Below are positions 53,433 to 57,410 of a stretch of DNA of 64,000 nucleotides, piece by piece. The stretch is from Brevundimonas intermedia. GTDB lineage: Bacteria; Pseudomonadota; Alphaproteobacteria; Caulobacterales; Caulobacteraceae. The DNA lies in contig NZ_BSFD01000010.1 in the NCBI RefSeq assembly GCF_027922165.1, positions 62,001-126,000 of the forward strand, in the 5' to 3' direction. The translations under genes and the position numbers were made by a program. The stretch's first letter is position 1. Every line of letters begins with the position of its first letter. The notes under the pieces were generated by a model. It was not told where the DNA came from and did not search any database. It was given only the letters and a program-made list of their open reading frames with translations.

Positions 53433-55319
53433 ATGCCCATCCGCCGCCTCTCCCCCGAAACCGTCAATCGCATCGCCGCCGGCGAGGTGGTCGAGCGGCC
53501 GGCCAGCGCCATCAAGGAACTGGTCGAGAACGCCCTGGACGCGGGCGGCCGCAATATCGAGATCCAGGCCGACGGCGGGGGCCTGTCGCGCATCCTGATC
53601 GCCGACGACGGCAAGGGGATTCCGAAAGACGAACTGCCCCTGGCCATCGAACGCCACGCCACGTCCAAGCTGGAACCCGACGACGCCGGCGATGTGGACC
53701 TGCTGCGTATCCACACCCTGGGTTTCCGGGGCGAGGCCCTGCCCTCCATCGGCTCGGTCGCCCGCCTGTCGATCACCACTCGGTCCCGCGACGAGACCGA
53801 GGCCTGGGTCATCCAGGTCGAGGGCGGCGCGACCCGTCCCCTGGCCCCCGCCCCCTTCCCCGGCCCGCACGGCGCGCGGGTCGAGGTGCGCGACCTCTTC
53901 TACGCCACCCCCGCCCGGCTCAAGTTCATGAAGTCCGAACGGGCCGAGGCCATGGCCATCTCGGAAGAGATCAAACGCCAGGCCATGGCGCACGAGGCCG
54001 TCGCCTTCACCCTGTCGCTGGACGGCAAGGTCGCGCTACGCCTGCCCGCCGAACACCCCGGCGACGAGGGCCGGCTGAAACGGCTGTCCGCCCTGCTGGG
54101 CCGCGACTTCGAGGCCAACGCCCTGCTGATCGACCAGGCGCGCGACGGCGTGCGCCTGTCGGGCTACGCCGGCCTGCCCACCTATTCGCGCGGCAATGCG
54201 GCGCATCAGTATCTGTTCGTTAACGGCCGCCCGGTGAAGGACCGGCTGCTGCAAGGGGCCCTGCGCGGCGCCTATGCCGACTTCCTGGCGCGCGACCGGC
54301 ACCCGGCCGCCGTCCTGTTCCTGGACATCGACCCGCTGTACGTGGACGTCAACGTCCACCCCGCCAAGGCCGAGGTTCGGTTCCGCGATCCGGCCCTGGT
54401 CCGCGGCCTGATCGTCGGCGCCCTGAGGCACGCTCTGCACGCCGCCGGCCACCGCGCCTCCACCACCGTCGCCGCCGACGCCATGGCCGGTTTTCAGCCC
54501 CACACGGGCGTCTCCACCGGTCCTGCCTACAGCCCCAGCTCCCCGTCGGCCCAGGGCTTCAGCGGCTGGACCGGCTGGTCCCAGCCCGCCGCCGCCGCCC
54601 AAGTCCTGCCCGGCCTCAACGAACGCAGCGCCCGCGTCGAACCCAGCTGGGACGGGCCCGCCTGGCCCCAGCAAGCGCCCGCCGACGCCGCCAGTCACGA
54701 CCCACGCTTCCCCCCTCACGCCCCCATCGACCCTCTCGACTACCCTCTGGGCGCCGCGCGGGGCCAACTGCACGCCAACTATATCGTCGCCCAGACCCGC
54801 GACGGCCTGGTCATCGTCGATCAGCACGCCGCCCACGAACGCCTGGTCTATGAGCGGATGAAGGCCCAGATGGCCGAGGGGTCCGTGACCCGTCAGGCCC
54901 TGCTGACGCCCGAGGTGGTCGATCTGGACCCGGCCGAGGCCGAACGCGTCGCCTCGCGCGCCGAGGAACTGGCCGAGATGGGCCTGATCGTCGAGGCCTT
55001 CGGCGCCGGCGCCGTCCTGGTGCGCGAGACCCCGGCCATGCTGGGCGATACGGACGTCCAGGGCCTGATCCGCGACATCGCCGACGATTTAGCCGAACAC
55101 GGCGCCGCCCTGTCGCTGAAGGAGCGGATGGCCGAGGTCTGCGGCACCATGGCCTGCCACGGCAGCGTCCGCTCCGGCCGCATCCTCACCGCCCCCGAAA
55201 TGAACGCCCTGCTCCGCCAGATGGAAGCCACCCCGCATTCGGGCCAGTGCAACCACGGCCGCCCGACCTATGTGGAGCTGAAGCTGCACGATCTGGAGAA
55301 GCTGTTCGGGAGGCGGTGA
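53433..55319 (+). CDS. mutL: DNA mismatch repair protein MutL
   Basis: 628 aa. The GHKL ATPase is clear: [50 protein letters not shown] Pro/Ala-rich linker (about 350-450) leads to the C-terminal dimer and nuclease domain with [12 protein letters not shown], which fits the endonuclease motif DQHAxxExxxxE, plus ACHGSVRSG and QCNHGRPT. So this MutL probably nicks DNA itself. ATG 53433 is the conserved start. Confidence 0.95.
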
Positions 55320-55342
55320 AAAAGAGGCGGACATTTAGTGAT

Positions 55343-56782
55343 TTACGAGATCGATAAGCGTTCTTGAGCTTCAGATAACTGCGACTTAACAGTCTCACTG
55401 AGTTTGCTCACTATCTTTTCGACCAACCATTCCACGTCTGCTCCCCAATCTTGCTTATACCACCGACGCGTTAACTCAGCCCCTTCGTAGTCGAAGGCCT
55501 GAAAGTCCGTTCGAGGATGTCCAGTTGCCAACTCGAACACAAAACAGCGCTCCAGGCTTGGTGCGCAAGTCACGACTAACTTAATCTTTTGAAGGGCCAT
55601 AAAATACGGAGTAAGCGTGAATGTAATCTGCGCCCGCTTCAAGCTCATATTTAGCTGAAGGTCCCAATGCTCAACGATTTGGTCGTCATCATATAACCCC
55701 ATTGCAAAAGATGCGGTCAAAGTCGCTAATCGGTTATTACGCTTGTGCTCTCGCGTAATTGTAGCAGTAACGAAATTGTCCGACCGCTTTTGCTGTGACA
55801 GCACCCGAATCATAAAACTGCGAGATCCAGTGTCATCAAAGTTCGAGCTCTCTGCGGCATTGGTCTCGTAGTAATCAGCAAAGTCCTCACTCTCTAGTCG
55901 AGCTCTGAGACCATCAAACAATGCACCTATGGTGGCCGTCACTTCTTCTGGCTTAGCGAGCCTTTCGTCAGTTTCGCGCAATAGGTCCAAAAGGCTAACA
56001 GGATTGGACAAGACAGCAGACGGAACAGCGCTATCGACAATGTTTAATGCAACAGACCGTTTTGAGCTCCATTCAATTTCAAATCGAGCGCGAAAATCAT
56101 CAAACGCGCTTGCGTCGTCAGTAAACGTCTCTCGAGCAGAGAATTGAAACGCAAAATGTGGTGTTCGATCTCGATCATTGATATAACGATCTCGAATTTC
56201 ACTGACTATGTCGGTGTAGTATACAGAACCTTCTGTCTTCTGCGTTACTGCTAAGCAGAATTGCTCTGTAAACTCGCTTAATGGCTCACCTGTGAGCGAC
56301 GTTTGAGAGTCCATACAAGAGGCGATTTGAACTAGGTTCTTTAGGCCACCCTTATCTGCTGGCAGAAAATCGCCTCCTGATTTGACCAGAAGCGAACCAG
56401 AGCTGCAGGCGTCAATGACCTTAACTACCAGTTCTGGTGAGGTCTCACGCAGGAGCGCATGTAATTCTGCATTGGACAGGCCCGTAGCATTGGGCTTCCG
56501 CGCGTCGAAGTCTTTGGGACAAAAGAAAAATTCTCCGTCCTCGCTGTGCCCGTGACCTGAGAAGTAGAAGAATATTTCCGACGCTGATGGCACAGGCTCA
56601 AGTGCCGCTCGCAGTTGCGCCTTCAATCCCGCCGCGTCCAAATCATTAAAGCGGTGGATATCATCAAAACGTCCGGTGGCGCTCAACAGTGTCGAAATCG
56701 CCTCTGCATCATCAACGCAGCAAGGTAGTGGAGACAGTCGAGCGTAGTCGGCACTGGCAATTACGATCGCGATGGCGGCCAT
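55343..56782 (-). CDS. Solitary caspase-family (metacaspase-like) protease
   Basis: 479 aa. The N-terminal ~230 residues form a caspase p20-like fold: strand AIAIVIASADYARL, then EIFFYFSGHGHSEDGEFFFC with catalytic His77, and VVKVIDACSSGSLL with catalytic Cys126. Residues ~240-479 are an unfamiliar domain with a long helical link and beta strands (LATLTASFAMGLYDDDQIVE, QLNMSLKRAQITFTLTPYFM). There is no signal peptide or membrane helix. Its base composition is clearly lower in GC than its neighbours, and it lies alone between mutL and a phosphatase, so it was probably acquired. A defence or cell-death role is inference. Confidence 0.8.
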   Translation of the reverse strand: MAAIAIVIASADYARLSPLPCCVDDAEAISTLLSATGRFDDIHRFNDLDAAGLKAQLRAALEPVPSASEIFFYFSGHGHSEDGEFFFCPKDFDARKPNATGLSNAELHALLRETSPELVVKVIDACSSGSLLVKSGGDFLPADKGGLKNLVQIASCMDSQTSLTGEPLSEFTEQFCLAVTQKTEGSVYYTDIVSEIRDRYINDRDRTPHFAFQFSARETFTDDASAFDDFRARFEIEWSSKRSVALNIVDSAVPSAVLSNPVSLLDLLRETDERLAKPEEVTATIGALFDGLRARLESEDFADYYETNAAESSNFDDTGSRSFMIRVLSQQKRSDNFVTATITREHKRNNRLATLTASFAMGLYDDDQIVEHWDLQLNMSLKRAQITFTLTPYFMALQKIKLVVTCAPSLERCFVFELATGHPRTDFQAFDYEGAELTRRWYKQDWGADVEWLVEKIVSKLSETVKSQLSEAQERLSIS

Positions 56783-56876
56783 GGAATTCCTTAGCGTTCA
56801 GGAGCGACTGATCAGAGTAGTCTGACTACCATCATAGAACTACATATTCTCCAGTTTTACAGACAAGCTTGGACCT

Positions 56877-57410
56877 ATGCGTAAATTTATCAATTCGTCG
56901 GATCAAAGCATCTCCTCCGAAAACATACGCCTAGGGCATGACCGCTCCATCCTCTTCGTCTGCCTCGGCAACATCTGTCGCTCCCCCCTCGCCGAGGCCG
57001 CCCTCCGCGCCGAGGCTGAACGCCTGCGCTTCGATCTGATCGTCGAGTCCGCCGGCACGGGGAACTGGCATGTCGGCCATCCGCCCGATCCGCGCGCCCA
57101 GGCCGTGGCGCGCAAACATGGGATCGATATTTCCGGCTATCAGGGCCGGCAGGTGACGCCGGCGGACTTCCGCCGCTTCACCCACGTCATCGCCCTGGAC
57201 CACGACAACCTGGCCAATCTGCGCCGCATCCAACCCGCCGACGCGGTCGCCGAACTCAGCCTGCTGCTCGACCACGTGCCCGGCCGCGAGGGCCAGGCCG
57301 TGACCGATCCCTATTTCGGCGACGACGCCGGGTTCGAGGTCACCTGGGCCGAGGTTACGGCTGCAGCGGAACAGCTGGCGGCGCGGCTTCGGGCGTCCCC
57401 CGTCCCGTGA
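56877..57410 (+). CDS. Low-molecular-weight protein tyrosine phosphatase
   Basis: 177 aa. The phosphatase P-loop is ILFVCLGNICRSPLAEAALR (nucleophile Cys in CLGNICRS), and the acid is in VTDPYFGDD. The domain starts near residue 23. The first ~20 codons are AT-rich like the caspase island, so the 5' end of this gene seems to come from the foreign DNA. Overlaps the convergent gene by 56 bp. Confidence 0.9.
   Translation: MRKFINSSDQSISSENIRLGHDRSILFVCLGNICRSPLAEAALRAEAERLRFDLIVESAGTGNWHVGHPPDPRAQAVARKHGIDISGYQGRQVTPADFRRFTHVIALDHDNLANLRRIQPADAVAELSLLLDHVPGREGQAVTDPYFGDDAGFEVTWAEVTAAAEQLAARLRASPVP

What the first reader, a model, noticed from the sequence alone, without database searches (positions are those of the whole stretch)
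55325..56935. Low-GC island with a solitary caspase-like protease
A single gene with an intact His77/Cys126 caspase dyad and a ~240-aa C-terminal domain I do not recognise sits between mutL and a phosphatase in DNA of clearly lower GC. No partner gene, transposase or repeat is visible. Bacterial caspase-like proteins increasingly turn up in anti-phage cell-death systems. The unknown C-terminus could be a sensor.
Basis: partly seen in the sequence, partly recalled or inferred. Interest (0 to 1): 0.75.

Follow-up and report, generated by a model that had tools for sequence, protein, structure and literature searches.

The report
One-gene caspase in a defence slot
A bacterial relative of our cell-death proteases, carrying its own unfamiliar second domain, sits alone in a chromosome slot where related bacteria keep different phage-defence and toxin-antitoxin genes, so it is probably a mobile single-gene kill switch against infection.

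Summary
Window 55343-56782 (- strand) encodes a 479-aa protein: a caspase-fold protease (His77/Cys126) plus a ~250-aa C-terminal domain that matches no Pfam or NCBIfam model and no PDB sequence. It lies in DNA of 49% GC against 68% around it, between mutL's stop and a low-molecular-weight phosphatase.

(1) It belongs to a family of caspases of 458-572 aa with the same two-domain layout, found in 8 phyla by record title and on 4 plasmids. The gene is lower in GC than its flanks in 66 of 67 loci, and no consistent partner gene was found. (2) In the same genus the mutL-phosphatase junction is a swap slot. Of 24 genomes with both flanks, 10 are empty and 14 carry other cargo of 1-2.9 kb. Five of those 14 are PADLOC-modelled defence systems or their close homologue (DRT2 twice, NsnA/HEPN, PDC-M03, PDC-M53); three more resemble toxin-antitoxin modules.

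Best explanation (0.6): a mobile one-gene abortive-infection protease, held inactive by its C-terminal domain until an infection signal, then cleaving after basic residues. Trigger, substrate and anti-phage effect are untested; a stress, toxin-antitoxin or plasmid-maintenance role remains possible.

The parts
55343..56782 (-). solitary caspase-family protease gene, 479 aa
   Evidence: ORF; Peptidase_C14 E = 3.8e-15; 73-row family alignment
56117..56782 (-). caspase domain, residues 1-222; His77 codon 56552-56554, Cys126 codon 56405-56407
   Evidence: Pfam 4-199; model's best PDB match is the MALT1 caspase domain 3v4o, E = 9.7e-11; His77/Cys126 in 73 of 73
56351..56380 (-). low-confidence loop, residues 135-144, following invariant Lys134; candidate self-cleavage or activation loop (inference)
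   Evidence: pLDDT < 50; Lys134 in 73 of 73, columns of residues 135-146 hold 11-24 residues across members
55346..56116 (-). C-terminal domain, residues 223-479: helices, then an antiparallel sheet and a long last helix; candidate regulator/sensor
   Evidence: pLDDT 90.2, pTM 0.79 when folded alone; no Pfam family matched by more than 1 of 64 members even at E <= 1; best VIA-align match 7ui9 chain q, Z 11.7, 111 residues, 2.5 A
55320..56942 (.). cargo slot between the mutL stop and the phosphatase coding region, holding the low-GC insert
   Evidence: breakpoints of congeneric alignments; 24-genome comparison
53433..55319 (+). mutL, conserved left flank
   Evidence: MutL_C E = 4.4e-50
56877..57410 (+). 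low-molecular-weight phosphotyrosine phosphatase, conserved right flank; its listed start lies inside the insert
   Evidence: LMWPc E = 9.3e-36; most relatives match only from ORF residue 23-24 on (query began at residue 2)

Best explanation
A mobile single-gene immune protease acting by abortive infection. SHOWN: a caspase-fold protease with intact dyad fused to a conserved, undescribed C-terminal domain; composition and distribution of a horizontally acquired gene; no consistent gene partner; sits in a slot that congeners fill with different defence and toxin-antitoxin-like modules. INFERRED: in uninfected cells the C-terminal domain keeps the protease inactive. A cue of infection (a phage protein, or damage to a host process) is read by the C-terminal domain, which dimerises or re-orders the protease. 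The active enzyme then cuts host and/or phage proteins after Arg/Lys, because the acidic pocket of metacaspases is conserved, and the cell stops growing or dies before phage release. The slot is probably refilled by homologous recombination through the conserved mutL and phosphatase genes, since no recombinase was seen among the 18 cargo proteins scanned.
For: Family: from 85 loci examined, 72 complete members of 458-572 aa plus the window, from 8 phyla by record title and 4 plasmids, two of them only 4.9 and 6.5 kb. Mobility: gene GC below flank GC in 66 of 67 loci; lowest-GC ORF of its stretch in 46 of 67, 7.3 expected; the window's nearest kin on the tree is Roseomonas, where the gene lies between an Ldh_2 gene and SAM synthetase. 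Single gene: among 725 neighbouring ORFs of 85 loci the largest recurring families are a recombinase-like one (my reading) in 5 loci and two confined to near-identical Lachnospiraceae loci; among the nearest 120 of 208 eligible neighbours the commonest Pfam families are resolvase and phage integrase, 4 each. Slot: 14 of 24 congeneric junctions hold > 500 nt of other cargo against 0 of 8 and 0 of 8 at pcm-surE and surE-serS. Cargo includes DRT2 (E = 1.6e-132 in L158; a 73%-identical homologue in L154), NsnA (6.6e-54) with a RiboL-PSP HEPN, PDC-M03A/B and PDC-M53A/B, and a PIN_10 pair. Specificity: TbMCA2 S1-pocket residues Cys92, Asp95, Ser156, Asp211 (PMC4357240, passage) correspond by register to Cys22, Asp25, Ser75, Asp124; Asp25 and Asp124 are in 73 of 73, Cys22 in 65, Ser or Thr at 75 in 73.
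Against: No functional data. No recognised sensor fold in the C-terminal domain. The slot is not purely a defence slot: L143 is TetR plus an ABC-transporter region, L150 is unclear, the L162 protein and L145's proteasome-like protein have no PADLOC match, L144 matches only by its SEC-C motif and L155 only weakly to GajB, E = 7.3e-6; cargo of L142, L143, L150, L154, L157 and L159 was not scanned with PADLOC. A third junction of the control, serS-mutL, exceeds 2 kb in 4 of 8. PADLOC matches only the caspase part of the protein (E = 4e-9, residues 4-182). Some neighbours of family members match defence models, none of these models in more than 2 of 120, and no control was run, so enrichment is not shown. 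No copy was found in the phage or viral collections, the latter with a query that finds close relatives only. The dyad count is partly built in: the scan required a motif around the His or the Cys.
Confidence: 0.6

Rival explanations
1. A stress- or maintenance-linked protease rather than phage defence: the caspase cleaves a host protein such as an antitoxin when the cell is stressed or loses a plasmid, as MaOC1 cleaves a ParD-like antitoxin.
For: MaOC1 of Microcystis cleaves a type II antitoxin and stops growth (PMC7935541, abstract). Family members ride on plasmids, and the 6.5-kb P. sordellii plasmid also encodes a PemK/MazF-family toxin. Congeners fill the same slot with toxin-antitoxin-like modules: L142 (PIN_10), L157 (PemK-like, below cut-off) and its near-copy L159.
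Against: No toxin-antitoxin family recurs beside family members; the strongest family matches in the slot are defence systems.
Confidence: 0.2
2. A downstream effector of a signal made elsewhere in the genome, working like the type IV Thoeris caspase: a TIR enzyme makes a cyclic nucleotide that the C-terminal domain binds.
For: Type IV Thoeris uses N7-cADPR to activate a caspase-like protease that degrades cellular proteins (stated in PMC12847820, passage, citing Rousset 2025, not read). This genome has two TIR_2 matches close together on another contig.
Against: The TIR genes of Thoeris are in the same operon (same passage). TIR is not among the Pfam families matched by 2 or more of the 120 neighbours, and ORFs of the two own TIR loci find nothing among 725 neighbours by phmmer (a weak test). 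Members on 4.9 and 6.5 kb plasmids have no TIR gene annotated on them.
Confidence: 0.08
3. An EACC1-type two-gene conflict system or other conserved operon whose partner was missed.
For: NCBIfam's only hit is caspase_w_EACC1 (E = 1.7e-16).
Against: 60.4 bits against a cut-off of 140. That system has a 5' EACC1 gene with a transmembrane helix (PMC7159879, passages); no consistent neighbour family was found here, and the gene upstream of the caspase in the window is the divergent phosphatase.
Confidence: 0.05
4. Neutral or selfish passenger DNA with no defence role.
For: Sporadic distribution: one other full-length match in 385 class genomes, own included, and one other genome with the C-terminal domain in 398, own included; 171 of 174 matching E. 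coli genomes cover under 80% of the plasmid caspase region.
Against: Intact reading frame, invariant catalytic and pocket residues over very diverged sequences, narrow length range.
Confidence: 0.07

Closest known systems
Type IV Thoeris caspase-like effector
   Same: bacterial caspase-fold protease used in anti-phage immunity; proteolysis of cellular proteins as the proposed outcome
   Different: that system has a TIR gene in the same operon; here no consistent partner and the trigger is unknown (PMC12847820 passage)
EACC1-associated caspases (NCBIfam NF047832)
   Same: N-terminal caspase domain followed by another domain; only NCBIfam match
   Different: under half of the curated cut-off score, no EACC1 partner gene, one constant C-terminal domain rather than up to 50 alternatives
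Orthocaspases such as MaOC1
   Same: prokaryotic caspase homologue with HC dyad; Arg/Lys specificity expected from the conserved pocket
   Different: [quoted passage not shown] MaOC1's sequence was not compared
MALT1 paracaspase and metacaspases
   Same: closest solved structures of the protease domain (MALT1 3v4o E = 9.7e-11; metacaspase-9 profile hit 7.3e-9)
   Different: eukaryotic; the C-terminal half here has no PDB sequence match
PADLOC 'caspase' model PDLC02987 (453 positions)
   Same: caspase part matches in the window and in 10 of 10 other members tested
   Different: best stretches stop within the first 171 of 453 profile positions, so the remainder differs
CapZ / Mediator 7ui9 chain q / Fbxo7 FP-domain fold
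   Same: C-terminal domain aligns at Z 8-12 over 102-133 residues (16 top rows)
   Different: no significant Foldseek match (best E = 0.15); a shared arrangement of about half of the domain, no functional claim

Membership tests
Peptidase C14 / caspase superfamily | caspase fold with His-Cys dyad | tested here: met
   Pfam E = 3.8e-15; MALT1-like fold; H77 and C126 in 73 of 73
Orthocaspase/metacaspase type (basic P1) | acidic S1 pocket residues equivalent to TbMCA2 C92, D95, S156, D211 | tested here: met
   register C22/D25/S75/D124; D25 and D124 73 of 73, C22 65 of 73, S or T at 75 in 73 of 73; cleavage preference itself not assayed
Type IV Thoeris | TIR gene in the same operon | tested here: not met
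   flanks are mutL and a phosphatase; no TIR family matched by 2 or more of the 120 neighbours; the genome's two TIR_2 matches lie on another contig
Type IV Thoeris | caspase effector homologous over its C-terminal half and binding N7-cADPR | not testable with these tools
   no type IV Thoeris effector sequence was fetched; binding needs biochemistry
EACC1-caspase two-gene system | 5' EACC1 gene with one transmembrane helix | tested here: not met
   no ORF of 80 aa or more between the caspase start and the phosphatase; the nearest minus-strand ORF upstream (56931-57275) is antisense to the phosphatase; no consistent neighbour among 725 ORFs of 70 aa or more
EACC1-caspase two-gene system | NCBIfam NF047832 curated cut-off 140 bits | tested here: not met
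   60.4 bits
Mobile defence cargo | sits in a slot with other defence genes in congeners | tested here: met
   5 of 14 occupied junctions carry PADLOC-modelled systems or their homologue; no matched control for that proportion was run
Mobile defence cargo | protects against phage | not testable with these tools
   needs a bench assay
CapZ / FP-domain fold | structural match to the C-terminal domain | tested here: inconclusive
   VIA-align Z up to 11.7, but only within Foldseek's own list and no Foldseek E below 0.15

The most novel reading that the evidence does not exclude
A widespread, previously undefined one-protein immune system: sensor and executioner caspase in a single chain, needing no signalling partner, with a new sensor domain that triggers dimerisation and Arg/Lys proteolysis on phage infection, spread across phyla as a single-gene cassette.
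Probability: 0.4. Interest if true: 0.8.

Novelty: new variant of a known kind. Interest (0 to 1): 0.6.

Why it matters
The two bacterial caspase conflict systems compared here in detail from papers (type IV Thoeris, EACC1) work with a partner gene. A solitary caspase with a constant, undescribed second domain in 8 phyla would make the question 'can one bacterial caspase sense infection and execute death alone?' directly testable with one gene and one point mutant. The mutL-phosphatase slot is a second lead: beside known defences it holds cargo with no or only weak PADLOC matches (a proteasome-like protein paired with a Panacea-like one, a DUF6883 protein, a SEC-C protein), so it is a place to look for new systems in this genus.

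Tried and rejected
Searches that found nothing: phage records by tblastn; IMG/VR scan with the single protein, which finds close relatives only; PDB by sequence with the single protein; viral structure library with the C-terminal model, best E 0.027; Rfam at gathering scores; repeats joining the insert's ends; a promoter above chance (1 site, 1.3 expected). I first guessed from the strand order that the C-terminal domain was a START/Bet v1 helix-grip; the structure searches did not list that fold among their best rows, so it is not claimed. A partner-gene hypothesis was tested by clustering 725 neighbour ORFs and rejected: one component in 5 loci (L047, L072, L080, L084, L085) reads like a tyrosine recombinase (my reading), two more are confined to near-identical Lachnospiraceae loci, the other listed ones are in 3 loci each and look generic. 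Whether the C-terminal domain exists without the caspase was tested in 398 genomes: 2 matches, the window and L168, and L168 carries the caspase too. A PADLOC scan of 120 neighbours gave scattered matches (type II restriction-modification, RT-Toprim, HEC-06, PDC models), none of these models in more than 2 members; without a control it says nothing on enrichment.

Paper searches for the family or the slot. From their listings no paper is recognisable as describing a solitary caspase family with this architecture or this slot; only open-licence PMC papers are covered, most were seen as listing only, and subscription papers (Rousset 2025 among them) were not read.

Row losses: one search kept 80 of 154 relatives. 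Of 85 loci, 12 fell outside 430-580 aa or were cut off (L036, L041, L066, L070, L073, L081, L083, L089, L094, L098, L102, L103) and L009 duplicates L039, leaving 72 plus the window. The GC test also dropped near-duplicates L077, L078, L080, L084, L090, used L009 in place of L039, and left out the window. The tree had 68 rows; the structure alignments (A3, A5) had 64. The neighbour scans used the nearest 120 of the 208 eligible proteins. In one search, 12 of 41 genus genomes had no phosphatase match; of the 29 with one I fetched 27 longer stretches, the window's own genome and G437 (a short contig) not among them; 3 of the 27 (L138, L140, L156) show no mutL end. Of 22 cargo ORFs of 100 aa or more, 18 were scanned with Pfam and 10 with PADLOC. 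In one search the printed flanks of L148, L153 and L160 are wrong places and L152 has none, because their gaps are 9 nt or less.

Full report
WHAT IS THERE. The reported stretch holds one gene, 55343-56782 on the minus strand, 479 aa. Residues 4-199 are a Peptidase_C14 domain (E = 3.8e-15) with His77 and Cys126. The rest matches nothing in Pfam, NCBIfam or PDB sequences. The gene has 49% GC; 16 kb of flank has 68%. The flanks are mutL and a low-molecular-weight phosphatase.

THE INSERT IS DISCRETE AND THE SITE IS A SWAP SLOT. In congeneric loci the alignment ends at the mutL stop, 55319, in 11 of the 14 that cover mutL (55309-55333 in the other 3), and resumes at 56933-56952 in 27 of 28 (56945 in 12; the exception is a short contig). 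I fetched 27 longer stretches around the phosphatase in the same genus; 24 show both flanks. Ten have at most 199 nt between the genes. Fourteen have 978-2887 nt, and the content differs: DRT2 reverse transcriptase in two (L158 E = 1.6e-132; L154 73% identical to it); a GmrSD/NsnA-like gene with a RiboL-PSP HEPN gene (L146); PDC-M03A/B, a HipA-like plus HIRAN pair (L141); PDC-M53A/B (L136); a PIN_10 pair (L142); a weak PemK-like gene (L157, 16.6 bits against a cut-off of 23.1) and its near-copy in L159, not scanned itself; a Panacea-like ORF (below cut-off) with a proteasome-like one (L145); a SEC-C protein (L144); a UvrD-like 904-aa protein with weak GajB matches (L155); a DUF6883 protein (L162); TetR plus an ABC-transporter region (L143); and an unclear 207-aa ORF (L150). 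The genome with the phosphatase most like the window's (97%) carries PDC-M53, not the caspase. As a control, in the 8 stretches that reach further upstream, pcm-surE and surE-serS never exceed 404 nt; serS-mutL exceeds 2 kb in 4 of 8, at nearly constant size, content not examined. No integrase was seen among the 18 cargo proteins scanned with Pfam (of 22 ORFs of 100 aa or more). Exchange by homologous recombination through the flanking genes is therefore a likely route (inference).

THE FAMILY. A first search found one other full-length relative in 385 class genomes, own included (34%); plasmid searches gave four more members. An alignment of these drove one scan of a collection of 84,980 genomes: 154 relatives, the best 80 kept. 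From the 85 loci then in hand, 72 complete genes of 458-572 aa align with the window. They come from Pseudomonadota, Bacteroidota, Bacillota, Cyanobacteriota, Acidobacteriota, Nitrospinota, Spirochaetota and Myxococcota by record title; some are metagenome bins, so single assignments may be wrong. The labels are clustered on the tree (10 changes for 8 groups against 26.2 in shuffles), so transfer between phyla is occasional rather than rampant; the window's own clade of nine mixes Pseudomonadota with one Bacteroidota and one Acidobacteriota bin. The window's nearest kin is Roseomonas, where the gene lies between an Ldh_2 gene and SAM synthetase, while 40 relatives of the window's genome have no full-length copy. 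The gene's GC is below its flanks in 66 of 67 loci, and it is the lowest-GC ORF of its stretch in 46 of 67 (7.3 expected). Among 725 neighbouring ORFs (70 aa or more, up to five each side, simple ORF caller) no consistent partner was found. Two members sit on plasmids of 4.9 and 6.5 kb with 5 and 4 annotated genes; the latter also encodes a PemK/MazF-family toxin. The protein therefore most likely works alone.

ANATOMY. AlphaFold gives a confident model (pLDDT 89.4, pTM 0.62). The protease half is closest to MALT1 and to Geobacter GSU0716. The published TbMCA2 pocket residues Cys92, Asp95, Ser156 and Asp211 (PMC4357240, passage) correspond by their spacing from the catalytic residues (TbMCA2 numbering of the dyad recalled), and for Cys22 and Asp25 by the alignment to metacaspase-9, to Cys22, Asp25, Ser75 and Asp124; the two acids are invariant in 73 of 73. 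That predicts cleavage after Arg or Lys. One loop, residues 135-144, is of low confidence in the model and follows an invariant Lys134; it could be a self-cleavage or activation loop (inference). The C-terminal domain folds alone with pLDDT 90.2 and pTM 0.79. It has no significant Foldseek match in PDB or in viral models. VIA-align places it near actin-capping CapZ, chain q of the Mediator entry 7ui9 (Med17, as I recall) and the Fbxo7 FP domain at Z 8-12 over 102-133 residues, above the tool's quoted typical best of 7-8. As I recall, those folds often mediate dimerisation, which would suit a caspase, but this is a lead only. The C-terminal half diverges faster than the protease half (7-17% against 25-40% identity to the window in the rows other than L027-L040), as expected of a part that tracks changing targets, though other causes are possible. 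In 398 genomes the C-terminal domain was found only with the caspase (2 matches, own included).

MECHANISM. Shown: anatomy, mobility, lack of a consistent neighbour, and slot context. Inferred: autoinhibition by the C-terminal domain, an infection trigger, basic-residue proteolysis and abortive infection. Against: no assay exists, the slot also carries cargo that is not recognisably defence, and defence enrichment around family members was not measured against a control (one search shows scattered defence-model matches only).

PLACE AMONG KNOWN SYSTEMS. It is a caspase-superfamily protease of orthocaspase/metacaspase type. It fails the operon test for type IV Thoeris and the score and partner tests for the EACC1 system. 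It may still work like the type IV Thoeris effector in killing by proteolysis. PADLOC's generic caspase model matches its first domain only. Ten paper searches listed no paper recognisable as a description of this family; the library is limited to open-licence papers. I saw passages of PMC12847820, PMC7159879, PMC4357240, PMC3501461 and PMC13236601, the abstract and outline of PMC7935541, and the rest as listings.

CAVEATS. The scan patterns contain motifs around His77 and Cys126, so conservation of one of the two is partly by construction for each member; Asp25 and Lys134 are outside the patterns, Asp124 inside one. The genus is unnamed in these tools. The class is probably Alphaproteobacteria, because the class-level match G265/L009 has the same match coordinates and neighbours as the named record L039.

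Noticed in passing
L025:8925-9800; L165:2474-3043: 174 of 5426 E. coli genomes match the plasmid caspase region, but only 3 have a place covering at least 80% of the query. Of 30 rows listed, 27 keep just the stretch with the last third of the gene; in the one inspected it is annotated as a hypothetical protein next to a frameshifted IS3 transposase.
   Followed up: partly
window 56877-56945: The phosphatase ORF's listed start (56877) lies inside the insert; where most relatives have an ATG just before the shared coding region the window reads GAC, and the ATG at 56938 is out of frame, so this gene may now start in insert DNA.
   Followed up: partly
L145:11540-12717: Slot cargo in a congener: a Panacea-like ORF (below Pfam cut-off) followed at once by a proteasome-like ORF (just above it); the proteasome-like protein has no PADLOC match, the Panacea-like one was not scanned there. 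A possible undescribed module.
   Followed up: no
L162:7576-9093: 506-aa slot cargo with DUF6883 and no PADLOC match.
   Followed up: no
L144:1876-3486: 537-aa slot cargo with a SEC-C motif, otherwise unmatched; its PADLOC hits cover only the motif.
   Followed up: no
L163, L164 (G000:C2:230965-231873): Two TIR_2 matches close together, on opposite strands, on another contig of the window's own genome.
   Followed up: no
L147, L149, L151, L161 between serS and mutL: The serS-mutL junction is about 2.4 kb in 4 of 8 congeneric stretches, at nearly constant size, perhaps a conserved extra gene.
   Followed up: no
L137 and L139, between mutL and the phosphatase: Two empty sites carry a short inverted GTCATCCTCGGGCTTGTCCCGAGGATCC-type sequence, likely an intergenic palindromic repeat.
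   Followed up: no
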